Shown piece after piece: positions 24,746-58,828 of a stretch of 64,000 nt of DNA. The notes beneath the pieces were generated by a model. The model searched no databases. It was not told the DNA's origin and was given only the letters and a program-made list of their open reading frames with translations. Each line of letters begins with the position of its first letter. Within the stretch, counting starts at the first letter, position 1. A program made the position numbers and the translations under genes. Source of the stretch: Candidatus Anammoximicrobium sp. (GTDB lineage: Bacteria; Planctomycetota; Planctomycetia; Pirellulales; Pirellulaceae); the NCBI GenBank assembly GCA_012515235.1, contig JAAYYU010000027.1, positions 124,001 to 188,000 on the forward strand. Reading direction: 5' to 3'.

Positions 24746-25756
24746 CTACAGCAGCGCGGTGGTCTCCGGGAAACCGTACATCCAGTTGAAGTTCTGCACG
24801 GCGGCGCCGGAGGCGCCTTTGACCAGGTTGTCGATACAGCTGACCACGATCACGCGTCCGCGAACCAAGCGGGCCGTGAGCTGACAGAAGTTGGTGCCGC
24901 TCACGTCTTTGGTCGCGGGCAGATGGTCCACCACCTGGACAAAGGTCTGGCCGGCATACGCCGCCCGCAGGGCCTCCAACAACTCCGCCTCCGTGACGGG
25001 CCGCGCCAGCGTCGCGTAGCCAGTGGTCAGGATGCCTCGGTTCATGGGCACCAGGTGCGGCGTAAAGATCGTCTCGATCGGCTGGCCCGCGACCGTTCCC
25101 AGCACCTGGTCGATCTCCGGATTGTGCCGGTGCTTGCCCACGTTGTAGGCGGCAAAGCTCTCGTTGCACTCCGGGAAATGCGTGGTCAGCTTGGGCGTCC
25201 GCCCCGCGCCGGAGACGCCGCTCTTGGAATCGAAAATGATCCCGGCGGGCTCGACCAGTCCACTCTTGAGCAACGGCGCCATCGGCAAAATGGCCGACGT
25301 CGGATAACAGCCCGGATTGGCGATCAGTGGCGCGCCTGGCAATTGGTCGGCAAACAACTCGGGCAGCCCATAGGGAACCCTTCCCAGCCGCTGGGCGTCG
25401 CAGTGCGTGTCTTCGTACCAGGCGCGGTACACGGCCAGGTCGTTCAAGCGATAGTCGGCGCTGAAATCCACGACCCGCACCCCAGCCTCGACCAGCGGCT
25501 TGACCACCTGGGCCGACGCCCCGTGCGGCAGACAGCTGAACACGCACTCGCACTCGGCTGCCACTTGTTGCGGGTTCAGATCCCGCAACCGCAGGTCCAG
25601 CCGCCCGACCAGGGCCGGGTGAATCGAGGCCACGTGGGGCTCGCCCTGCTGCCGGCTGGTCAAAACCGTGATTTTCGCCTCCGGATGGCGGAGCAGGAGC
25701 TTGATCAGTTCCACGGCCGTGTAGCCGGTGGCCCCTAAAATGCCGATGCGGATCAT
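24746..25756 (-). CDS. argC: N-acetyl-gamma-glutamyl-phosphate reductase
   Basis: A 336-residue ArgC, the third step of arginine synthesis (NADPH-dependent reduction of N-acetylglutamyl phosphate to the semialdehyde). The nucleotide loop G-I-L-G-A-T-G-Y-T-A is at residues 5-14. The catalytic Cys150 sits in A-N-P-G-C-Y-P-T-S-A, and H-L-V-P-M-N-R-G contributes to the active site further on. Length and order of motifs are typical of the long ArgC type. It precedes argJ on the same strand and is divergent from the PIG-L deacetylase gene. Confidence 0.97.
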   Translation of the reverse strand: MIRIGILGATGYTAVELIKLLLRHPEAKITVLTSRQQGEPHVASIHPALVGRLDLRLRDLNPQQVAAECECVFSCLPHGASAQVVKPLVEAGVRVVDFSADYRLNDLAVYRAWYEDTHCDAQRLGRVPYGLPELFADQLPGAPLIANPGCYPTSAILPMAPLLKSGLVEPAGIIFDSKSGVSGAGRTPKLTTHFPECNESFAAYNVGKHRHNPEIDQVLGTVAGQPIETIFTPHLVPMNRGILTTGYATLARPVTEAELLEALRAAYAGQTFVQVVDHLPATKDVSGTNFCQLTARLVRGRVIVVSCIDNLVKGASGAAVQNFNWMYGFPETTALL

Positions 25757-25934
25757 GTTGGTGCGTTCCTTAGTCGCGCGCGAAGCCCAAATTCAAAGTG
25801 CCAAGTATAGCGTTCGCAAAATTCTCGCCAAGGGACGGGGTCTCGGCTCGAAAGGCACTCGCCGGATCGTTAGAATCCAGGCTGCCGCCGTAGTCTGGCG
25901 GCAGGCACACTTCTTTTTGGGAGGAACCGCGACT

Positions 25935-26702
25935 ATGAAGACCGCCCTAGCCATCTGCGCTCATCCCGACGACATCGAATTCCTGATGGCGGGAACCATG
26001 ATCCACCTGCGCAACGCCGGGTACGAACTGCATTACATGACCGTCGCCAACGGCAGTTGCGGCAGCAACCGGTACGACACGGAAACGCTGATCCGCATGC
26101 GCCGCCTGGAGGCGATGGCCGGCGCGGCCAGCTTGGGCGCCGTGTTTCACGAAAGCGTTTGCAACGACCTGGAAATCTTCTACACGTTGCCGCTGCTGGC
26201 CAAGGTTGCGGCCGTGGTCCGCGAGGTCGCTCCAGAAATTGTCCTGACCCACGCGCCGGTGGACTACATGGAAGACCACATGAACGCCGGCCGGCTAGCT
26301 GTCACGGCAGCCTTTGTCCGCGGCATGCCCAATTTCCAGACCGATCCGCCGCGTGCGCCCGTGGACAACCAGGTCACCGTTTACCATGCCCAACCCCACG
26401 GCAACCGCGATCCGCTGGGGCAAATCGTGCGGGCCCAGATCTACGTCGATACGACCGACGTGCTGGACCAGAAACTGGCGGCGGTCTCGAAGCACGAGAG
26501 CCAGCGGTCGTGGCTGGGGGACAGTCAGCAACTGGACTCGTACATGCAGGCCCTGTGCGACCTGGGCGCCGAAACCGGGCGTCTGTCCGGCCGCTTCCGG
26601 TACGCCGAAGGCTGGCGGCGGCACCTGCACCTGGGCTTCTGCGGCCCGGCGGACAACCCGCTGGTCGACGCGATCCCGGACAAAGTGCTGATGCCGGAAT
26701 AG
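25935..26702 (+). CDS. PIG-L family deacetylase
   Basis: A 255-residue protein of the PIG-L/LmbE family of zinc-dependent N-acetylglucosamine deacetylases. The metal motif A-H-P-D-D-I-E-F is at residues 8-15, and the third zinc histidine is expected in D-H-M-N-A-G-R-L. There is no signal peptide, so it should be cytosolic. A ribosome binding site (gggagg) precedes ATG 25935. Family members act on GlcNAc-inositol, bacillithiol precursors or antibiotic intermediates, and none can be chosen from context. The next gene on the same strand encodes a permease 64 bases downstream. Confidence 0.9.
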   Translation: MKTALAICAHPDDIEFLMAGTMIHLRNAGYELHYMTVANGSCGSNRYDTETLIRMRRLEAMAGAASLGAVFHESVCNDLEIFYTLPLLAKVAAVVREVAPEIVLTHAPVDYMEDHMNAGRLAVTAAFVRGMPNFQTDPPRAPVDNQVTVYHAQPHGNRDPLGQIVRAQIYVDTTDVLDQKLAAVSKHESQRSWLGDSQQLDSYMQALCDLGAETGRLSGRFRYAEGWRRHLHLGFCGPADNPLVDAIPDKVLMPE

Positions 26703-26766
26703 CGCCGGCACGTTTCTTCCGCGTCGTGCGGGCCGTAGGTTCTTTCTTCAAGCCGGATGAGTGCTT

Positions 26767-27969
26767 ATGCGCAGCGTGCTGCTCGTTCTCGCGTTTGTCG
26801 CGTTCACGATGATCAGTTGGGGGCTGTACGGTCCCGCCGTGCACGAGGGCCAGTATCAGCTTGGGGGCGGGGCGTATCCCAGCAGCCTGCGGCCTTTCAT
26901 CTGCGTCGGGCTGGCGTATTTCCTGATCGCCGTCCTGGTCCCTCTGCTGACGCTGCGGTCCAAGAGCGAGCAAGGCAACTGGACGGTGCTGGGGGCGGTC
27001 TGGGCGTTCCTGGCCGGTGCCGTCGGCGCCCTGGGAGCCTTGGGAATGGTGTTGGCTTTCAAGTTTCGCGGCGATCCAGTGTACGTGATGCCGCTGATCT
27101 TCGGCCTGGCGCCTGTGGTGAACACATTTTTCGCGATGTGGCTGGCGCGGACGTTCAAGGAAGCCCGTCCGCTGTTCTTTTCCGGAGTGATTCTGGTTGC
27201 TGTGGGCGCGGCGGGCGTGTTGAGCTTCAAGCCTGCGACCCCTGAGCGATCGCCGGTGGGAGCATCCGCCCAGGCGGAGACCACAACCGATCCGGCAACG
27301 ACGCCTGCGGCCTCGGCACAGCAGGCATCGACGGTGGAGAAGCTGGTGAAGATCCCCTTGTCCATCGCGCTGGCGGCGTTGTGTTGGGGCGCTTACGGAC
27401 CGCTCCTGCACAAGGGCCAGATGCGGATGGCCGGCAGCCGGCTGCGGCCCTTTTTGTGTGTCGGGCTGGCGTATTTTGTGATTGCGGTCCTGCTGCCGCT
27501 GCCGTTGATCCAGTTTTGCCGCGAGCCGGGCGGCTTCAACTTCTCCGGGATCACCTGGTCCTTGGCGGGCGGCGCGGCCGGAGCCATCGGAGCTTTGGGC
27601 ATCGTCCTGGCCTTTAACTTCGGCGGCAGACCGGTCTACGTCATGCCGCTGGTGTTCGGCGGCGCCCCGATCGTAAACACGTTCACGGCGGTGCTGACGG
27701 CAGGCAATTCCAGCGACCTTTCGCCGTTGTTCCTGGCGAGCCTGATCGTGCTGATCGCCGGTTCGGCGACCGTGCTGGTCTTTGCCCCGCGCCAGGCCAG
27801 CCCGGCTGCCGAGCCCAGGCTGTCTGAGTCGCTGCCCGGCGAGCCACCAACGCCGGCAACCAGCGAGCGCAAGCCCGATGACGAGACAAGTCCCGGCGAT
27901 GACTGTCGAGAGGATCTGGAAGACACGCTCGACGACGACGATACGGTGATGCAAGAACGTCCGGACTGA
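26767..27969 (+). CDS. Permease of the drug/metabolite-transporter type with two repeated halves
   Basis: A 400-residue membrane protein made of two closely similar halves. W-G-L-Y-G-P-A-V-H-E-G-Q (residues 18-29) matches W-G-A-Y-G-P-L-L-H-K-G-Q (207-218). R-P-F-I-C-V-G-L-A-Y-F-L-I-A-V-L matches R-P-F-L-C-V-G-L-A-Y-F-V-I-A-V-L, and P-V-Y-V-M-P-L-I-F-G matches P-V-Y-V-M-P-L-V-F-G. The halves are joined by a Thr/Ala-rich linker (about 155-192), and the C terminus is a long acidic tail. It resembles glucose/ribose-uptake or EamA-type carriers, but the substrate is unknown. A GTG 6 bases upstream is an alternative start. Confidence 0.75.
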   Translation: MRSVLLVLAFVAFTMISWGLYGPAVHEGQYQLGGGAYPSSLRPFICVGLAYFLIAVLVPLLTLRSKSEQGNWTVLGAVWAFLAGAVGALGALGMVLAFKFRGDPVYVMPLIFGLAPVVNTFFAMWLARTFKEARPLFFSGVILVAVGAAGVLSFKPATPERSPVGASAQAETTTDPATTPAASAQQASTVEKLVKIPLSIALAALCWGAYGPLLHKGQMRMAGSRLRPFLCVGLAYFVIAVLLPLPLIQFCREPGGFNFSGITWSLAGGAAGAIGALGIVLAFNFGGRPVYVMPLVFGGAPIVNTFTAVLTAGNSSDLSPLFLASLIVLIAGSATVLVFAPRQASPAAEPRLSESLPGEPPTPATSERKPDDETSPGDDCREDLEDTLDDDDTVMQERPD

Positions 27970-28163
27970 CCCGACACGCCGGCAGAAAGCCCGTTTTTTG
28001 GAAAGCCGGACCGCCGATTCCACGGCTCGCCGCGCTTGACCTCTCGCGGAGTCTGCCTACGATTCGTTTACGAGTGTCTTGTGTTCACGGCCTCCGACGG
28101 GATGAGGGAGGGAAAGCTGCACAGGCCGGAAGCCCGTGCCATCGTTGACGGAGTTGCCAGCAG

Positions 28164-29249
28164 ATGGATCGGGTTTGCAAAATTGCTGCGTCCTTCTTGG
28201 CTCAAACTCAACTCTTTCGGCTCCTGCTCATGGTCGCTGTGGGGGCGGCTGCTAGCTTCGCCCCTCGCTCCGCTCAGGCAGCCGCGCCGGAGGTTTCCTT
28301 TGACGTCACGCCTTCGGCAAGTTGCCGCGATGTGACCACGGCCGAATTCGCGGAAGCCAACCCCGACGAGCGGCTGATTGAGGTCCTGATCGAGGTTTCG
28401 GCGCTGATTCGGCAAGGCAAAGAGGACGATCTGCTGCAGTATTTCTATCGCTTCGACAGCCCGCGGCGGACGATGCGCGTCGTGGACTATGCGCCCAAGA
28501 CGACCTTGGCCAGCGATCTCGCCGGAAATGTGACGATCGAGCAGAAGCAGGAGGCGAGCAAGGGACTCGGACTGGCGGTCACCGCGCCGCTGGACTGGCC
28601 GGCCAAATTGAGCGGATCGGGCGACCTGGGAACGAAGACGACGGATACCAAGCGTTACGAACTGGTCCCGCCGATGACGGCCGTAGCGGCCAGCGGCACG
28701 CTGGACCGCGGCTACAGCGTGTATTTCAAACTCAGGCCGTCACGCAGCCTGTCGCTGGAGGGCGCCCGGCTGTTCACGCTCGTGCTTCGCGTGCCCCACC
28801 ACTGGCGCGCGGACTACGGCCATCTCACCTGTACCGCCTCGGCTTCCGCACAGGGGTTGCTGGGCCCGCTGGACGAGGAAGTGGTCTGCGGCCGGCGGCG
28901 GTTTGTCGTCGCCCTGTATGCCGAGGGCGATGCCTCCGCCAAGGCGGCGGCGGAACGCCTGGTCCGCGCCGAATCGGAACTGCTGAAGACCATCTCTGCC
29001 AACCGTCAAGAGCTGCAAAAACGGTACTATCCGACCTTTGCCCACCGCTTGGGGGCGTTCTTGGAAGGCGTCTCGGAAACGCTGCCCGACAGCGTTGCGG
29101 AGGTGATCGTCTACGGCGGCCGGTTGCCGGAACGGGACATGCTGGCCCTCCGACTGCCGGCCGAAGTCCGTCAGGCCGCCGCCCGCTACAGCGTCGCCCG
29201 GCGGGCCCTGTCCAGTCTGGGGACTGCCGAGACGGAGGAAGTCCAATAG
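28164..29249 (+). CDS. Secreted protein of unknown function
   Basis: I do not recognise this 361-residue protein. It has a signal peptide (L-L-L-M-V-A-V-G-A-A-A-S-F-A, cleavage likely after A-Q-A near residue 39). A mixed domain follows with R-Y-E-L-V-P-P-M-T-A-V-A-A-S-G-T-L-D-R-G-Y-S-V-Y-F-K-L in the middle, which looks like the edge of a beta-rich domain. The C-terminal third is helical and Ala-rich. A ribosome binding site (ggag) lies 12-15 bases upstream of ATG 28164. It is monocistronic and no neighbour suggests a role. Confidence 0.7.
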   Translation: MDRVCKIAASFLAQTQLFRLLLMVAVGAAASFAPRSAQAAAPEVSFDVTPSASCRDVTTAEFAEANPDERLIEVLIEVSALIRQGKEDDLLQYFYRFDSPRRTMRVVDYAPKTTLASDLAGNVTIEQKQEASKGLGLAVTAPLDWPAKLSGSGDLGTKTTDTKRYELVPPMTAVAASGTLDRGYSVYFKLRPSRSLSLEGARLFTLVLRVPHHWRADYGHLTCTASASAQGLLGPLDEEVVCGRRRFVVALYAEGDASAKAAAERLVRAESELLKTISANRQELQKRYYPTFAHRLGAFLEGVSETLPDSVAEVIVYGGRLPERDMLALRLPAEVRQAAARYSVARRALSSLGTAETEEVQ

Positions 29250-52758: not shown

Positions 52759-53100
52759 CTACGGGGCGTCCACCAGGTCGTACACGCGCACGTAATCGAC
52801 CAGAAACCGATCCGGCAGTTTCGCCTTGGTGATGTCGCCGGCCCAGTCGCCGATTTCGTCGCTTAGCTTGATGTACAACGGCACTTGGCAAACACCGCCG
52901 GCTTGGCTGCGCCACGTTTCCTTGCCGTCGACATAGAAAACATACTCGTCAGCCTTCCACCACAGGCTGAACGTGTGCCAGCCCTGCATCACGCCCGGCA
53001 CGCTCGCGACATGGCCCTCGGACCGGTGTTCCTTGCCGTAGCCGTCCCAGTGCAGCGCGTGCTGCACCCGCTCGTCCCGCCAGGGCTTTTCCATGATGTC
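52759..53100 (-). pseudogene. GH16 glycoside hydrolase, 3' part (gene split by integrated element)
   Basis: This piece encodes the C-terminal half of a GH16 glycoside hydrolase. The reading frame runs in from the element boundary as D-I-M-E-K-P-W and continues with the beta-strand F-S-L-W-W-K-A-D-E-Y-V-F-Y-V-D-G-K-E and D-Y-V-R-V-Y, which is the usual end of the family. The 5' half is at 57670-58097. When the two are joined at the TC/GA core, they give one intact 255-residue frame. Alone, this part lacks a signal peptide and the first catalytic Glu. Confidence 0.88.
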
Positions 53101-53124
53101 AATTATGGTGCTAGTTAAACCTTT
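53080..53124 (+). other. Left attachment site of the integrated element
   Basis: At this junction host DNA (ccatgatg) meets element DNA (aattatgg) around the TC dinucleotide 53099-53100. The element side has aattat next to the core and ttaaaccttt at 53115-53124. Both recur in inverted order at the right end, as expected for the two halves of a serine-integrase attP. The host side matches the GH16 catalytic-motif codons. Confidence 0.8.
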
Positions 53125-53157
53125 CCGCTACAATCCAGGGAACCAAAGGGGAAGCCG

Positions 53158-54813
53158 ATGAAAAACAAGCCGAAAATCGCCGTAAAACACGCCGTATCAT
53201 ACACCAGATACAGCACAAAACCACAGGGCAAAGGCAGTAGCAAGGGTAGGCAGGGCAACACGACGGTTGATTTTTGCGAAAGGAAAGGTTGGGTACTTCT
53301 GGACGCAATCGAAGACTTGGGTTTATCCGGCTTCACGGGCAAGCACCTTGCCAAGGGTGCGTTAGGTGCTTTCCTTGCCGATTGCGAACTAGGCAAGGTG
53401 CCAAGGGGAACGGTGCTTTGCGTTGAAAAAATGGATCGGCTATCCCGGTTAGGAATTGACGAAACCATAACCCTAGTGAAACGCATCTTAAAAACGGGTG
53501 TTGAAGTTTGTACGGTCCTACCTGAATTACACTTGACCCCCGGTGACTTAGACGACTACGCCAAAGTCTTAATGTTGGTGACGTTTGCCTATACAGCAAA
53601 GGAATACAGCGAAAATTTAAGTTATCGGGTCGGTAGTGCATGGGCTAGAAAACGTCAAAAAATTGCGACAGGTGAAAAACTGACTAGGAAGACCAAAGGG
53701 TGGTTAGAATCCAATGAAGACCGAACCGCTTACAAGGTAAAGAAAGGGGCGAAAGCAATCCTTGAATTGATATTTCGCCTAGCCATCGATGGTTTAGGTT
53801 TTGATGCCATTATCAAGCACCTAAACGAACATGACATTCCGCACTTAGAAGACGGAACTTGGCAACGAAAATATATTTCTAGCATCCTTCACGATAGGGC
53901 GGTTCTAGGTGAATTCCAGCCATGTAAGAACGGCAAGCCGGAAGGGCAACCGGTGAAGGGTTATTATCCACAGGTGATAGACGAAACCACTTTCAATAGG
54001 GCGCAAGCCGCATTAGCAAAACGAAGACGAAAGGGTGGTCCAAGGGGGCGAAAGGTTGCCAATCTATTCACGGGTTTAGTTTATGATACTGCCGATGGTT
54101 GTATCTGTCACCTTACAGAAAAAGCACCTGGAAAACCTGCCCTAGTTTCTAGTGGTGCAATCCGACACCAGAAAGGAAGCAAGTATTCTTCATTCCCCTA
54201 TCGTGCCTTTGAAGCAAGCATCCTAGATATGCTTCCCGAATTGCTACCACAGGTATTCAGGGATACAGAACACGCCGATTTAATTTCTACCATAGCCGAA
54301 CTAGAACAAGCACAAGACGGAAGGAAGGAACGAATTGAAGCATTGAAAAAAGCATTCAAGGCGAAAAGCGACTTTGCCACAGCATTAGAATTGATGGGGG
54401 AAACGGAAGCCGAATTTAAGACGACAGAAAAAGAAATCGCAGCATTGAAAGCGAAACTTGCTAACACGACAAACGGCGGTCTTCATTCCACGTTAGAATT
54501 GATAGGCAAAGCGGCAAAAGGTAGCGTTGAATTTCGCCAGCAATTGAAGGGCAAGATTGCATCCTTGATTAGTCGCATCGATTGCACCTTCACGGGCGAT
54601 AGAAGGATTAAACACGCCGAAATTATTATCACTTTTGAAAACGGGGAAACCCGCCATTTACAGATTGTCGCTAACACCCTGAAAAATGCTTGTGCCTACA
54701 TGCAAGGGAAGGATACTACGGTCCTACTGATTCCCAAAGGGAAACCGTATATCAAACGCACCACAGGGGAAGACGGCGGGTTTAAGTATCTAGGGATACA
54801 CCTAACGCATTGA
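53158..54813 (+). CDS. Large serine recombinase (integrase)
   Basis: A 551-residue large serine recombinase. The catalytic domain starts with [10 protein letters not shown], with Ser19 as the likely nucleophile. E-K-M-D-R-L-S-R carries the conserved arginines near residue 93. A recombinase domain follows ([12 protein letters not shown]), then a coiled coil (about residues 385-445). The zinc-ribbon region has only two cysteines (G-C-I-C-H), fewer than the usual four. It lies 57 bases from the left att site, and a ribosome binding site (aaggggaag) precedes ATG 53158. No CTC or GAG occurs in the gene. Confidence 0.92.
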
Positions 54814-54831
54814 ATTTAACTTGACCTTATC

Positions 54832-54863
54832 GCCCTGCCTATGCAAGTAGGCAGGGCTTTTTT
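54832..54863 (+). terminator. Intrinsic terminator after the integrase gene
   Basis: A 9-bp perfect stem (gccctgcct with aggcagggc at 54849-54857) with an 8-base loop is followed directly by TTTTTT. It lies 19 bases after the integrase stop and is a standard intrinsic terminator. Confidence 0.9.
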
Positions 54864-54991
54864 GTTCGACAAAGGTTTTACATAAGTTTTACATTCAAGG
54901 TGGAAGGGACGGGAAGCGGGAATACTACATATCGAAAGAAAAAGCCCAAAGGCGGACAACCAATGGGCGGGAACTAGAACGGATTTTACCT

Positions 54992-55855
54992 ATGAAATTA
55001 TGTAGTAAGACAAGCCCCAATTCCGACGGAAAAAAATTAGAATTTCCTATTCAACATCGGAACTACTTTCAACCCAAGAAAAAGCAGACATGGTTTGACA
55101 AGCAGGACAACAAGATAACGGGCAAAGTACCCGACTATCCCTATGCAAATAATTGCGGGGGTTGGACGGCTGGAATATGGGGCTATCTGGTCAATGCGCA
55201 TAGGGAACACGATATCTTTTTAGTCAACGATAGGCTTACCGGGAATCCCGCCTACATCGGACGAATTCTAAAACTTGATGAAGTAATCACCCCGGAACGG
55301 GTAAAGCAGGTTGCCAAGCAGATTAAAGCCGGGATGAAAAAAGCCGGTTTGCCGTACTGGTCTTGTTTGGAAGTGAACGAAAAAAATACATTCCATTGGA
55401 ACGTATTAGTTCGTTGTCCTGACAACCCGGAAAATGAAAAAGTAATTTCAGCAGTTTTGCGTCAATCGTCCGGGGATATTCGTTGTCGGGTTGAAAAATT
55501 CAAAACGAAGATAACCAACGTATCGGGACTAGTCGCCTACTGCTTGAAGTGTAAGCAACCCGACAACGAAGGGCATAGGGACCGATGGAACCGCAAGCGG
55601 GTATTATTCGCCAAGCGTACCGGGTTAAAAAAGGTGGAAAGTTCAACAGACTTTTTCAAAGTCGGGAAGGGTAAAATCATGGCAGCAATTCGGGCAACCC
55701 GGAACGTGGAAAATGCCGCAAAGACCCTCATCCCTTCTAGTATATGTAATGTAAATGTTATTAACCCTGTTTTAGTGGAACAAATTGAAGGTGAAAATTT
55801 CACAATTTTCTTACCGAAAGGAACTAACGGAAATGGAAACGCAAAACCCGTCTAA
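54992..55855 (+). CDS. Rep-like protein of the element (function uncertain)
   Basis: A 287-residue protein that I do not confidently recognise. The order of segments recalls rolling-circle Rep proteins. W-S-C-L-E-V-N-E-K-N-T-F-H-W-N-V-L-V-R resembles the E...H-x-H-core strand but with a single His. V-A-Y-C-L-K-C-K is in place of the usual Y-x-x-K-Y block, and R-K-R-V-L-F-A-K-R follows. If it is a HUH-type initiator, the second His of the metal motif is missing. It overlaps the next small gene by 23 bases. The context (integrated element with resolvase) fits a replication gene. Confidence 0.5.
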   Translation: MKLCSKTSPNSDGKKLEFPIQHRNYFQPKKKQTWFDKQDNKITGKVPDYPYANNCGGWTAGIWGYLVNAHREHDIFLVNDRLTGNPAYIGRILKLDEVITPERVKQVAKQIKAGMKKAGLPYWSCLEVNEKNTFHWNVLVRCPDNPENEKVISAVLRQSSGDIRCRVEKFKTKITNVSGLVAYCLKCKQPDNEGHRDRWNRKRVLFAKRTGLKKVESSTDFFKVGKGKIMAAIRATRNVENAAKTLIPSSICNVNVINPVLVEQIEGENFTIFLPKGTNGNGNAKPV

Positions 55856-56042
55856 TAGAATACAGGATAAAATCGCACAAGACATTGACCGGGAAACATG
55901 GGAAGCAATCTTTGCCCTAGTGGAACTTGAACTAGTGGAAGACGGCTTGCTTGACATAACAGAAACCAGACACTTGGAAGACCCCAAATACGTAAACAAC
56001 GTGAATAGGCGAACAAGGCGGGTAGCGGTAGCGATAGCGTAA
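55833..56042 (+). CDS. Small protein of unknown function
   Basis: A 69-residue protein with an acidic amphipathic N-terminal half (I-A-Q-D-I-D-R-E-T-W-E-A-I-F-A-L-V-E-L-E-L-V-E-D) and a basic tail (N-R-R-T-R-R-V-A-V-A-I-A). It starts inside the Rep-like gene, 23 bases before that stop, so translation is coupled. The stop lies in a long stem-loop. Size and position recall copy-number or partition partners of Rep genes, but there is no motif to confirm this. Confidence 0.6.
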   Translation: METQNPSNRIQDKIAQDIDRETWEAIFALVELELVEDGLLDITETRHLEDPKYVNNVNRRTRRVAVAIA

Positions 56043-56063
56043 CCGCCCCGCCTTGTTCGCCTA
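56006..56063 (+). repeat. Long stem-loop over the 3' end of the small gene
   Basis: An inverted repeat with arms of about 23 bp (taggcgaacaaggcggg... and ...cccgccttgttcgccta), with one unpaired base, spans the stop codon at 56040-56042. No T-run follows, so it is not an obvious intrinsic terminator. It could end transcription with Rho, be a recombination site for the resolvase or serve in replication. Confidence 0.7.
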
Positions 56064-56253
56064 TAGTGTTTGGGGTAATAAGAATTAGCCCTAACGGGAT
56101 TAGCCCGATTAGAAACCCCGTAGGAAATCAACTTCTAGCCCCCTAGCGTTGCATTAGACGCATTCAAAATAAAAACAGGACTGGAAACACGTCCTAGCCC
56201 TTAAATCAATTCCTAGCGTGTAATCCTTTGAATTACAGAAGGAAAAATTTACT

Positions 56254-56487
56254 TCAATCAAAAGACCACTTGGAAGACGTTCGGGATACTTGACGCAAGA
56301 TGCTGTCAATTTTACTGGTTTGTTGTGCTTGTTCGGTATGGTTGCCATCGGGTAGGTACTTCCTAATCGGGTCTTCATTCGTGACGAAATCCCGAACAAG
56401 TTTTGACATAGAAACCCGGCTGGATTTTGCCATCGTCTTTAGTGCGTTTGCTTGGCTATCGGTTAGATACAAGTGAATCCGTTTCAT
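56254..56487 (-). CDS. Ribbon-helix-helix DNA-binding protein
   Basis: A 77-residue protein with a ribbon-helix-helix fold at its N terminus (M-K-R-I-H-L-Y-L-T-D-S-Q-A-N-A-L, then S-M-S-K-L-V-R-D-F-V), as in CopG/Arc-type regulators. The C-terminal half is polar and low in hydrophobic residues. Such small proteins often control copy number, partition or a toxin gene on plasmids. The upstream sequence to 56830 is shared with the divergent resolvase gene and has two similar short strings (aagtgtatcSgat) that could be operators. Confidence 0.75.
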   Translation of the reverse strand: MKRIHLYLTDSQANALKTMAKSSRVSMSKLVRDFVTNEDPIRKYLPDGNHTEQAQQTSKIDSILRQVSRTSSKWSFD

Positions 56488-56572
56488 GCTGTATTTATCC
56501 CACAAATGGGACAAAATGAAATTTAATTCAACGGCTGTCGCGAACATATAGGACAAGTGTATCCGATATAAG

Positions 56573-56600
56573 CCCCCTGCTTGCGAAAGCAAGCGGGGGG
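56573..56600 (+). repeat. 12-bp stem with GAAA tetraloop
   Basis: ccccctgcttgc (56573-56584), gaaa (56585-56588) and the pairing arm gcaagcgggggg (56589-56600) make an uninterrupted stem with one G-T wobble. A GAAA tetraloop on such a stable stem is typical of structured RNA or DNA hairpins at plasmid origins. It lies upstream of the minus-strand RHH gene. Confidence 0.8.
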
Positions 56601-56758
56601 GCGGTCTTGATTGTTCGGGGTTTCCGATCGTTAGACGCCCCGCCCCTGCCTTGAAAAAGTGTAAAGCATCAATAGTCATCCGAAAACAGCCGTTTTCGGG
56701 ACGTGTTTTAACGACTTACGGCAAAGAAAAAGTGTATCGGATGAAGTATAAAGCAGGC

Positions 56759-56787
56759 TTGACACTTTATTAGCCGATGATTAGGAT
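56759..56787 (+). promoter_or_regulatory. Sigma-70-like promoter of the resolvase gene
   Basis: TTGACA at 56759-56764 and TAGGAT at 56782-56787 are separated by 17 bp, the ideal spacing. The -35 is a full match and the -10 has 4 of 6 consensus bases. The resolvase ATG is 43 bases downstream, with aagga in between as ribosome binding site. Confidence 0.7.
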
Positions 56788-56830
56788 ACGGGAAGTGAAC
56801 ACAACCCGCCCCGAACAAGGAAAACCAGCT

Positions 56831-57436
56831 ATGACAATCGCCGTTTATGAACGTGTTAGCAGCAAGGCACAAGACACGAAATCCCAACGTCCCGACTTGG
56901 AACGATGGGTTGACGCCTACGCCAACGGGGAAGCGGTTAAAATCTATCGGGACAAGTTCACGGGAAAAACAATGGAACGGAAGGGGTGGAAGCAACTAGA
57001 AACCGACTTGGAAGCGGGCAAGGTTTCCAAGATTTTGGTATGGCGACTTGACAGAATCGGCAGAACGGCTAGCGGATTGACGAAACTTTTTGACTACTTG
57101 ACCGCAAAGAAAATTACCCTGATTTCAATTAAAGACGGTCTTGATTTGGGGACAAGTGCGGGGCGGTTAATGGCGAACGTGTTAGCCAGTGTCGCCCAAT
57201 ATGAAACCGAAGTAAGGGCGGAAAGGGTTCTAGCAGGTCAAGCGGTTGCGAAAGCGAACGGGAAGACATGGGGCGGAAGTGAACGGGGGCGGCTTGTGAC
57301 CGTGAAACCCGAACAAGTGGAAGCGGTCAAGCGATACCATGCGGAAGGGATGAAGGTTGCCAAGATTGCCCGCACCGTTGGCGTTAGCCGTCCTACGGTT
57401 TACCGCTTGTTGGAACAATCCGCTACTTGCCCGTAG
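56831..57436 (+). CDS. Small serine resolvase/invertase
   Basis: A 201-residue serine recombinase of the resolvase/invertase type. The N terminus has Y-E-R-V-S-S-K-A-Q-D-T-K-S-Q, with Ser10 as the likely nucleophile, and W-R-L-D-R-I-G-R carries the conserved arginines. A C-terminal helix-turn-helix ends with V-A-K-I-A-R-T-V-G-V-S-R-P-T-V-Y-R-L-L. It is distinct from the element's large recombinase and may resolve dimers of the circular form. ATG 56831 has aagga upstream. The gene contains no CTC or GAG. Confidence 0.93.
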   Translation: MTIAVYERVSSKAQDTKSQRPDLERWVDAYANGEAVKIYRDKFTGKTMERKGWKQLETDLEAGKVSKILVWRLDRIGRTASGLTKLFDYLTAKKITLISIKDGLDLGTSAGRLMANVLASVAQYETEVRAERVLAGQAVAKANGKTWGGSERGRLVTVKPEQVEAVKRYHAEGMKVAKIARTVGVSRPTVYRLLEQSATCP

Positions 57437-57474
57437 AACGCGATAGCAACGCATTAGAACGGGGTTCAATCATC

Positions 57475-57498
57475 AGGGCAATTCATCGCCCCTTTTTT
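57475..57498 (+). terminator. Weak intrinsic terminator after the resolvase gene
   Basis: A short imperfect stem (agggc with gcccct) is followed by TTTTTT at 57493-57498, 38 bases after the resolvase stop. The stem has one bulged base, so it is less certain than the one after the integrase gene. Confidence 0.5.
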
Positions 57499-57626
57499 GT
57501 TGCCCGTTTGTTAAATCGCATCCTAGAAAATGGGATAGAAACATCCGATTTAACCCCCGGACTATTGATTTTTTTTCGATGGGGGTCTAGTGGTGGTTGG
57601 CAAGACCGCGTACATGGGGCGGGATT

Positions 57627-58097
57627 TTAGACGATGGGTGATTGCAAAGGTGTAATCGGGGCGATAATTTCGATTTCCGTCCCGTCCCGCCCGGCCTCTC
57701 CGATCCTGCCGACGCTGGCGTGGTACAGCCAGAAGGCCGACCAATGGCCGGGCTGCTCCTGGAGCTTGATCCGAGCCGCATAGTAGCCGTGGGCGTGCTC
57801 GAACTTGCCCCGCGTCCGCACGCAGGCGTCAAGATACCGATCGCCGTCCTGCAACGTGCTGATCGCCAGATGGCCGTTCCCGTCCAGCGATACGGCTTGG
57901 GGTGACCACCAGCCGTCCCGGCGCCGGTGATCCGGTGCCTCCCATTTCGATTCGTCCAGCTTGTGGCCGTCAAATTCGTCGTGCCAGACCAGTTTCCACG
58001 CCGTGCCCGCGGGCGGGGCCGGAAGTTGTCCGTCCGACTCAGCAGCCTTGGCAGCAACCGCCAGAAATCCGAACAATATGGTCAACGCAATCTTCAT
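57627..58097 (-). pseudogene. GH16 glycoside hydrolase, 5' part (gene split by integrated element)
   Basis: This piece encodes the signal peptide (about residues 1-19) and the N-terminal half of a GH16 enzyme (laminarinase/agarase/lichenase group). It contains L-V-W-H-D-E-F-D-G and Y-A-A-R-I-K-L, and stops in R-D-G-T-E-I-(D/E), the first part of the catalytic motif. Beyond 57670 the frame reads element DNA to a stop at 57627 and adds about 14 meaningless residues. Joined to 52759-53100 it gives E-I-D-I-M-E, whose two Glu are the nucleophile and acid/base. It is 32 bases after the SGNH gene, in the same operon. Confidence 0.9.
57646..57690 (+). other. Right attachment site of the integrated element
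   Basis: Element DNA ending gataatt meets host DNA gatttccgtcc around the TC dinucleotide 57670-57671. On the element side aaaggtgtaa at 57646-57655 is the inverted counterpart of ttaaaccttt at the left end, both about 15-24 bases from the core. The host side continues the GH16 gene (E-I-D frame). Confidence 0.8.
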
Positions 58098-58129
58098 CGT
58101 GGTTGTCTCCTGGAGGTCCGGGCGCGCAC

Positions 58130-58828
58130 TCATTTCCCGAACGAGGCCTGCCTGAGAGCCTCTGCAATCTGTTTCGCCACCTGTTCGACCTGGGCCGCGA
58201 CGCCCTGGGCGTTGAAATGGACGCCGTCCGGAGACCAGTATTCCGGATGGTCTTTCACCAAGCCGTACAGATCGTCGACGGCAATCCCTTCGCGGACCAT
58301 GATGTCTTCGGCGATCTTGTTCCTGGCTTGCACCCGCCTGGTGTTCTCGGCGATCACGTCCAGCTTGCCCGCCCGACGCATCGGCGTGATGGTGGCCCAG
58401 ATCAGTTTGGCCTGCGGAGCGTGCTTGCGGATCGTCGCGATCAGGTCGGGGAAGGCCTTCTGGTAGTCTTCCTCGCTGTAGCCCCAGCCGTGCAAGCCGT
58501 TGTTGAAGTGGACCACGTCAAAGCGGCACTGACCGAGCACCAACGCGACTTCGGCCAGCAGGGCCGGGTCGCCGATCGACTTCGAGGTCGTCAGCCGGGC
58601 CACGGAGGCCTTGCCTTTCAACGCGTCCGCGACCTTGGCGCCGTAGCCGCCGGTGATCGAGTCGCCGACCAGGAGCACCCGCGGCAGCGCCGTGCCATGC
58701 GCGTCGGGAATCCAGATGTTGCACCATTCAATCGCTTCGCGAGCGATGTGCGGCTCTGATCCGTGAACTGACGCCCTGGCCCCCATTCCGATTGTTAGTA
58801 CCAGGGCGTAGCCGAGAAGACGTTTCAT
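58130..58828 (-). CDS. Secreted SGNH/GDSL hydrolase
   Basis: A 232-residue hydrolase with signal peptide (about residues 1-19) and the SGNH motifs: V-G-D-S-I-T-G-G with Ser57 as the nucleophile, N-N-G in block III, and D-G-V-H-F-N for the Asp-His pair in block V. Family members are carbohydrate esterases or lipases, and here an acetyl-esterase role on the polysaccharide attacked by the neighbouring GH16/GH43 proteins is inference. A good ribosome binding site (ggagaa) precedes ATG 58828. Confidence 0.9.
   Translation of the reverse strand: MKRLLGYALVLTIGMGARASVHGSEPHIAREAIEWCNIWIPDAHGTALPRVLLVGDSITGGYGAKVADALKGKASVARLTTSKSIGDPALLAEVALVLGQCRFDVVHFNNGLHGWGYSEEDYQKAFPDLIATIRKHAPQAKLIWATITPMRRAGKLDVIAENTRRVQARNKIAEDIMVREGIAVDDLYGLVKDHPEYWSPDGVHFNAQGVAAQVEQVAKQIAEALRQASFGK

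What the first reader, a model, noticed from the sequence alone, without database searches (positions are those of the whole stretch)
53101..57671. Almost complete absence of CTC/GAG from a 4.57-kb integrated element
Reading every line of the element I found one CTC (55727-55729) and no GAG, in genes of both orientations and in non-coding DNA. At random about 140 would be expected on both strands, and the flanking host DNA is full of both right up to the att sites (for example ctc at 53071 and at about 57693). Every Glu codon I checked is GAA. The depletion crosses codon boundaries, so it is a DNA-level effect and not codon choice. CTAG, usually rare in bacteria, is frequent (about 27), and I saw no GGCC. 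This is the pattern expected if a host defence, modification, PAM-like recognition or targeted mutation acts on a 3-bp motif. I know of no described case of this kind.
Basis: seen in the sequence. Interest (0 to 1): 0.96.

Follow-up and report, generated by a model that had tools for sequence, protein, structure and literature searches.

The report
Mobile DNA purged of GAG/CTC
A small piece of mobile DNA inserted in a bacterial chromosome, and separately a group of bacterial viruses with no detected relation to it, have lost the three-letter DNA word GAG/CTC almost completely, which likely reflects attack by a still unknown DNA-cutting system that would recognise only those three letters.

Summary
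The 4,571-bp element has 0 GAG and 1 CTC against about 91 expected (1,000 dinucleotide shuffles: minimum 66), also across codon boundaries and in non-coding DNA. The loss stops within 30 bp of both ends. It was not seen in 883 kb of the same host genome or in the fetched loci around relatives of the element's genes. The element (serine integrase, divergent HUH-type Rep, RHH protein, resolvase) sits inside a GH16 gene.

The main new result: DNA with no detected similarity shows the same elimination. A siphophage clade has 2-9% of expected GAG/CTC in 8 of 12 IMG/VR contigs and 3-5% in five named phages: Pseudomonas phages 73, PaMx42 and LPPA15, Burkholderia phage KL1, Variovorax phage VCLv11. 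Four other P. aeruginosa phages (0.76-0.86) and 120 arbitrary viral contigs (lowest 0.57) do not. In KL1 and PaMx42, 14 of 29 and 12 of 38 surviving sites are in Shine-Dalgarno positions.

Best reading: selection on duplex DNA against a 3-bp word, likely by an undescribed, density-dependent (perhaps nicking) nuclease. The agent was not identified; whether it is host-borne or phage-borne, and whether both cases share it, is open.

The parts
53099..57669 (.). Integrated element, 4,571 bp, 46% GC, with one GAG/CTC; 2-bp TC shared at both junctions
   Evidence: Joining the flanks at 53098/57670 restores an open GH16 reading frame with the motif EIDIME; composition
53158..54813 (+). Large serine recombinase (integrase), 551 aa
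   Evidence: PF00239 4.7e-16 and PF07508 3.8e-13; phrog_95 integrase 2.9e-60
54992..55855 (+). Divergent HUH-type Rep (rolling-circle-type replication initiator, inferred), 287 aa
   Evidence: No Pfam, NCBIfam or PDB sequence match; a model built from two other Reps finds it at 1.5e-8; aligned motif HWN opposite HYH. Single-sequence fold poor, pLDDT 37.5
55833..56042 (+). Small ORF, 69 aa, function unknown; could start upstream
   Evidence: No match at E 0.001 in Pfam, NCBIfam or PHROGs
56005..56064 (.). Hairpin, 18-bp perfect arms; terminator or origin feature (inferred)
   Evidence: Inverted repeat I3; DNA fold -32.6 kcal/mol, z -8.6
56254..56487 (-). Ribbon-helix-helix / NikA-like protein, 77 aa (the open frame runs to 56679)
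   Evidence: PF21983 NikA-like 3e-4, 21.3 bits, below the family cut-off of 27; phrog_3431 Arc-like repressor E 0.01
56550..56745 (.). Repeats AAGTGTATC.GAT upstream of the resolvase gene: res-like site (inferred)
   Evidence: Direct repeats D7 and D11
56777..57436 (+). Serine resolvase (probable start at 56831)
   Evidence: PF00239 2.5e-33 and PF02796 1.5e-9; relatives at 60-63% identity in other genomes
55727..55729 (+). The only surviving CTC, inside the Rep gene
52759..53094 (-). C-terminal part of the interrupted GH16 gene
   Evidence: PF00722 8.6e-9, profile positions 83-173
57627..58133 (-). N-terminal part of the interrupted GH16 gene; the ORF runs some bases into the element
   Evidence: PF00722 3.4e-6, profile positions 9-65

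Best explanation
This 4.57-kb integrated, plasmid-like element has lost every GAG/CTC but one, most likely because a still unidentified nuclease that would recognise the duplex word GAG/CTC counter-selects it in mobile DNA. Shown: the loss is symmetric between strands, independent of codon phase, present in non-coding DNA, confined to the insertion, and repeated in a clade of siphophages with no detected similarity to the element. Inferred: the agent is a nuclease (restriction-like, probably host-borne); each site costs something but not everything, because phages keep 20-40 sites, many of them in Shine-Dalgarno positions; a nicking or otherwise density-dependent attack fits that better than a type II enzyme for which one site suffices. 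Also inferred: the same kind of agent acts on the element and on the phages.
For: 0 GAG and 1 CTC against 91 expected, shuffle minimum 66 of 1,000. Phase and non-coding tests. One-base neighbours of GAG are not purged: AAG 223/168, TAG 152/94, GAA 247/189, GAT 138/116, GAC 113/104, GGG 189/176, GTG 99/107, GCG 110/127, CAG 70/93. The element also avoids 4-bp palindromes (0.65 against a host mean of 0.93, SD 0.03, n=12) and 6-bp palindromes (0.40 against 0.77), a usual mark of restriction. Independent case: 8 of 12 IMG/VR relatives of contig L260 have 0.018-0.092 of expected GAG/CTC; LPPA15 21/701, VCLv11 31/792, KL1 29/809, PaMx42 38/891; phage 73, 12-kb piece, 11/231. Controls: YuA 0.80, LUZ24 0.86, phiKMV 0.81, D3112 0.76 (14-kb pieces); 120 arbitrary viral contigs, 972 kb, lowest 0.57, median 0.84. 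Surviving sites in Shine-Dalgarno windows: KL1 14 of 29 (0.2 expected), PaMx42 12 of 38 (0.3 expected).
Against: No GAG-reading enzyme was found, and no natural restriction enzyme with a fixed 3-bp non-palindromic site is known to me. Phages with 21-38 sites left would still be cut by an efficient enzyme. On the same host species, phages of other groups show no loss, which does not look like one host-wide enzyme. Relatives carrying Rep or resolvase genes do not share the element's loss: the lowest 2-kb window in 160 loci is 0.31, and the closest in architecture, L097, is 79/142.6 = 0.55. The only surviving phage context bias seen (GAGT 0.12, GGAG 0.09, others 0.01-0.05) is explained by AGGAGT ribosome sites, so it says nothing of the enzyme. 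The phages also lose CAC/GTG (0.30-0.55) and most, but not PaMx42 and Langgrundblatt1, lose GATC; the element keeps GTG (99/107), so the two cases are not identical.
Confidence: 0.55

Rival explanations
1. Phage-borne attack: the phage group would carry a GAG/CTC-reading nuclease that destroys host and competing DNA, so its own genome, and any mobile element that must survive such infections, is purged of the word.
For: The loss follows the phage lineage, not the host species. It is graded within the group: Langgrundblatt1 0.13, FtMidnight 0.24, AH03 0.49, Kmi2C 0.50, BREN6 0.74, HD01 0.80. A protein annotated 'Vsr endonuclease' in KL1 has relatives in 10 of the 14 other genomes compared.
Against: G776 is strongly depleted (0.033) and gave no significant Vsr-like match, while BREN6 carries one at 55% identity and is at 0.74. 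The three Vsr-like proteins tested match no Pfam family. The element encodes no such gene, and none was found in the held host DNA.
Confidence: 0.2
2. Biased mutation: a deaminase or repair process with CTC/GAG specificity would erase the word without any cost of the word itself.
For: 9 of 14 phage genomes compared carry a dCMP-deaminase-like gene.
Against: It is also in G780 and G781, which are at 0.79-0.81, and no related gene lies in the held host DNA or window. Replacements are not of one kind: BREN6 GAG codons become GAA in 51 of 69 aligned positions but also GAC, GAT and others; CTC Leu becomes CTT 5, CTG 3, TTG 2 (six genes, two phages). In the element TAG is as much in excess as GAA and AAG. 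Shine-Dalgarno sites are spared.
Confidence: 0.08
3. Replication constraint: a primase or initiator that reads GAG/CTC would misfire at stray sites, so the element and the phages remove them.
For: Primases read trinucleotides (recalled); the phages share a primase with an NrS-1-polymerase-like domain.
Against: Both strands are purged alike, whereas a strand-specific initiation site should be purged on one; the element has a HUH-type Rep and no primase was recognised in it.
Confidence: 0.07
4. CRISPR-PAM avoidance: spacers requiring a GAG or CTC PAM would select for loss of the motif.
For: PAM depletion by P. aeruginosa phages targeted by type I-F is reported (PMC12174588, abstract).
Against: That report speaks of a lower frequency, not of near-total loss. 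No CRISPR array or spacer search was made here.
Confidence: 0.05

Closest known systems
Restriction-site avoidance by phages and plasmids (PMC6286503, passages read; PMC10359461, abstract read)
   Same: Near-complete loss of a short word from mobile DNA, with general palindrome shortage in the element; strongest avoidance reported for small plasmids and lytic phages
   Different: Reported avoidance is mainly of palindromic type II sites; here the word is a fixed, non-palindromic 3-mer
Ultra-short restriction and nicking enzymes: CviJI, SetI, FaiI (PMC5948728, passages) and the chlorovirus nickases Nt.CviPII /CCD and R/AG (PMC7019647, passages)
   Same: Enzymes reading two to four base pairs exist; R/AG would include GAG
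   Different: None named there reads GAG alone; AAG is in excess in the element (223 against 168), so an R/AG enzyme does not fit
Septimatrevirus / Kilunavirus phages (phage 73, PaMx42, KL1)
   Same: GAG/CTC at 3.6-4.8% of expectation
   Different: Lytic-type tailed phages, no detected sequence similarity to the element; also lose CAC/GTG in part
Integrative elements with HUH Rep, resolvase and integrase in related genomes (G176, G123, G577)
   Same: Rep and resolvase, with a serine or tyrosine recombinase, and palindrome shortage
   Different: GAG/CTC only mildly low (0.55 in L097, higher in the others)

Membership tests
Restriction-site avoidance | Word strongly under-represented in mobile DNA and not in the host chromosome | tested here: met
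   1 against 91; longest free run in 883 kb of host DNA 481 bp
Restriction-site avoidance | Effect independent of coding, both strands | tested here: met
Restriction-site avoidance | A cognate restriction enzyme and methylase for the word | tested here: inconclusive
   The host assembly has many methylase-like genes: PF01555 9 matches, PF02384 14, PF00145 3, PF07669 9; their specificity cannot be read from sequence, and the assembly is rated 7.57% contaminated
Orthodox type II site (palindrome) | Palindromic word of 4 bp or more | tested here: not met
   GAG/CTC is a 3-bp non-palindrome; every one-base extension is also lost
R/AG nicking enzyme (chlorovirus type) | Both AAG and GAG avoided | tested here: not met
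   AAG 223 against 168 expected
CRISPR PAM avoidance | Spacers match the element next to the motif | not tested
   No spacer search made
Serine-integrase integrative element | Large serine recombinase with resolvase and recombinase domains | tested here: met
Serine-integrase integrative element | Clean insertion with a short shared core | tested here: met
   TC at both junctions; flanks restore a GH16 frame
HUH replication initiator | HUH metal-binding motif and catalytic Tyr | tested here: inconclusive
   Homologous to Reps with HYH (1.5e-8), but the window protein has HWN; fold not predicted well

The most novel reading that the evidence does not exclude
An undescribed and widespread DNA-targeting system reads exactly three base pairs, GAG/CTC, in duplex DNA, attacks in a density-dependent way (for example by nicking), and has independently purged the word from an integrative plasmid-like element and from a clade of siphophages of Pseudomonas, Burkholderia and Variovorax. 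Its target word is shorter than any fixed non-palindromic restriction site known to me.
Probability: 0.45. Interest if true: 0.95.

Novelty: new variant of a known kind. Interest (0 to 1): 0.87.

Why it matters
Loss of a word from mobile DNA is a fossil of what attacks it. A nearly complete loss of a fixed 3-bp, non-palindromic word points to an agent that no described restriction enzyme I know of matches, and it is seen in two kinds of mobile DNA without detected similarity. The phages concerned are cultured isolates with laboratory hosts, so the cause can now be tested directly. It also explains why these phages use GAA for Glu and where they tolerate the word (ribosome sites).

Tried and rejected
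Codon choice: rejected, the loss crosses codon boundaries and holds in non-coding DNA. Low GC: rejected, expectation uses the element's own dinucleotides, and other 43-56% GC loci keep the word. Avoidance of internal Shine-Dalgarno words: rejected as the cause, since CTC is lost as well and phages keep GAG precisely there. RNA cleavage at one strand's word: rejected for the same symmetry. Host-wide property: rejected for the 883 kb examined. A family trait of the element: relatives of Rep (8 of 395 genomes incl. own; 2 of 196; 1 of 392), of the integrase (42 of 196) and of the resolvase (109 of 196) were found; only part of those places was fetched (about 50 loci of several kb), none with comparable loss.

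The partial loss in L097 (0.55) is not exceptional among other loci and is not counted as support. The contig L260 was found by luck: a 16-mer from the element's hairpin also occurs in it by chance. All ten paper searches are spent; only passages or abstracts were read.
Full report
1. The observation. In window 53101-57671 GAG occurs 0 times and CTC once, at 55727. From the element's own dinucleotides 90.8 are expected on both strands; 1,000 dinucleotide-preserving shuffles gave mean 91.8, SD 7.8 and minimum 66. On the + strand GAG is 0 of 64.2 and CTC 1 of 27.9. Glu is GAA in 77 of 77 codons. Shuffling synonymous codons (which keeps the present codon usage) gives on average 14.5 and 19.3 words in the two shifted phases; none is seen in either. 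The 1,018 non-coding bases hold 0 of 17.7 expected. The nine one-base neighbours of GAG are between 0.75 and 1.62 of expectation, so the purged word is exactly three bases, with CAG/CTG (0.75) the only neighbour that is clearly low.

2. Where it stops. The nearest GAG/CTC outside lie at 53071 and 57696. Joining the flanks at 53098 and 57670 restores an uninterrupted GH16 reading frame containing EIDIME, and the dinucleotide TC is shared by both junctions, as for a serine integrase. In 61 stretches of the same genome (883,325 readable bases; the stretches were the rest of this contig, neighbourhoods of methylase genes, and starts of other contigs) the longest run without the word is 481 bp and the lowest 2-kb window is 0.34 of expectation, median 0.70. 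So the host is mildly low, the element almost empty.

3. Anatomy. A large serine recombinase, a divergent HUH-type Rep, a small ORF, an RHH/NikA-like protein on the other strand, a serine resolvase, an 18-bp perfect hairpin and res-like repeats. Rep has no detectable relative in several collections but is found at E 1.5e-8 by a model of two Reps from elements in other genomes. Those elements combine Rep, resolvase and a serine or tyrosine integrase and also run short of palindromes. None shares the GAG loss; L097 is at 0.55, the others higher. Ribosome sites upstream of the element's genes, such as AAAGGGGAAG, also lack GAG.

4. Restriction-like background. 4-bp palindromes are at 179 of 273.6 (host pieces: mean ratio 0.93, SD 0.03, n=12) and 6-bp palindromes at 21 of 52.2 (host 0.77, SD 0.06); among 187 pieces of other loci the means are 0.90 and 0.72 and the lowest 0.60 and 0.25, so the element is low but not extreme. 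GGCC 0 of 16.1, AGCT 1 of 12.5 and GATC 2 of 16.7 are the strongest. GAG/CTC, at 1 of 91, is lost more thoroughly than the sum of palindromes.

5. The second case. A 16-mer of the hairpin, sought in IMG/VR, drew 29 contigs. One of them, L260 (6,591 bp, tail genes), has 2 GAG/CTC against 110; the other 28 are at 0.67-1.02. blastn finds no similarity between L260 and the element or the window, so the shared 16-mer is chance. Of 12 contigs encoding relatives of its tail protein, including itself, 8 are at 0.018-0.092 and 4, at 66-69% identity, at 0.69-0.86. Three longer contigs have 28 of 764, 22 of 661 and 36 of 756.

6. Named phages. Of 15 phage records examined in whole or part, five are below 0.05: LPPA15 21/701, KL1 29/809, VCLv11 31/792, PaMx42 38/891 and a 12-kb piece of phage 73, 11/231. 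Two are intermediate: Langgrundblatt1 0.13, FtMidnight 0.24. Two are near half: AH03 0.49, Kmi2C 0.50. Six are ordinary: BREN6 0.74, HD01 0.80 (its record lists queuosine-type biosynthesis genes, so a deazaguanine modification of its DNA is possible), YuA 0.80, LUZ24 0.86, phiKMV 0.81, D3112 0.76. The last four infect P. aeruginosa as do three of the five purged ones. Among 120 contigs drawn by an arbitrary 14-mer (972,301 bases) the lowest is 0.57, the median 0.84, and none has any trinucleotide below 0.15.

7. Selection or mutation. In six core genes (10.1 kb) KL1 and PaMx42 have 6 and 7 words against 150 in BREN6. Where BREN6 has a GAG codon, the two purged phages have GAA in 51 of 69 aligned positions, otherwise GAC, GAT and other residues; CTC for Leu is matched by CTT 5, CTG 3, TTG 2. 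In KL1 14 of 29 and in PaMx42 12 of 38 surviving words lie 6-16 bases before an annotated start, where 0.2 and 0.3 are expected, mostly as AGGAGT. The word survives where it is useful. That is the mark of selection against each site, balanced by function; it also says that one site is not lethal, which argues for a density-dependent agent, such as a nickase, over an efficient double-strand cutter. This last step is inference.

8. What the agent may be. The host assembly holds many methylase-like genes (PF01555 9 matches, PF02384 14, PF00145 3, PF07669 9); of seven looked at in PADLOC four resemble type II, one type III and two type IIG enzymes. None can be tied to GAG. In the phages a protein annotated Vsr endonuclease is found in 10 of 14 genomes compared with KL1 and a dCMP-deaminase-like protein in 9 of 14, but neither tracks the loss. 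The literature read (passages) names CviJI, SetI and FaiI as the only natural restriction enzymes with sites shorter than 4 bp (PMC5948728) and the chlorovirus nickases /CCD and R/AG (PMC7019647); R/AG is excluded by the excess of AAG. Avoidance is reported mainly for orthodox type II sites and not for type I or IIG (PMC6286503, passages). No paper found in ten searches of this library reports loss of GAG/CTC; most papers of subscription journals are not in it.

9. What is open. Whether the element and the phages met the same agent is not shown. They differ: the phages lose CAC/GTG in part (0.30-0.55), the element does not (99 of 107); GATC is nearly lost in the element and in most of the purged phages, but PaMx42 shows no such loss, so GAG loss does not depend on it. 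The phage pattern follows lineage more than host, which keeps the phage-borne reading alive.

Noticed in passing
L260 (IMGVR_UViG_3300019784_001072), L269-L274, L277: Siphophage contigs with 2-9% of the expected GAG/CTC, almost no GATC and reduced CAC/GTG; found by a chance 16-mer
   Followed up: yes
L419 (KL1) and L421 (PaMx42), upstream of annotated starts: Surviving GAG words concentrate in AGGAGT Shine-Dalgarno positions; a few CTC are conserved at the start of the major head protein gene in both phages
   Followed up: partly
window 53094-53100 and 57668-57675: The integrase inserted the element into the codons of the GH16 motif EIDIME
   Followed up: partly
L097 1-5000: Element with Rep, resolvase and serine integrase in which CTC/GAG is the most depleted trinucleotide (79/142.6) and CGCG and GCGC are absent (0 of 15.1 and 0 of 13.8)
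   Followed up: partly
L280 (HD01) 25603-29172: Queuosine-type biosynthesis genes in a relative of the purged phages that keeps GAG at 0.80; its own lowest trinucleotide is GCC (0.53)
   Followed up: no
L283-L290, L282: The purged phages and Kmi2C also lack 5-mers such as CCAGG, CCCAG, CACAG and GGACC
   Followed up: no
window 56005-56064: 18-bp perfect hairpin, DNA fold z -8.6, between the small ORF and the RHH gene
   Followed up: partly
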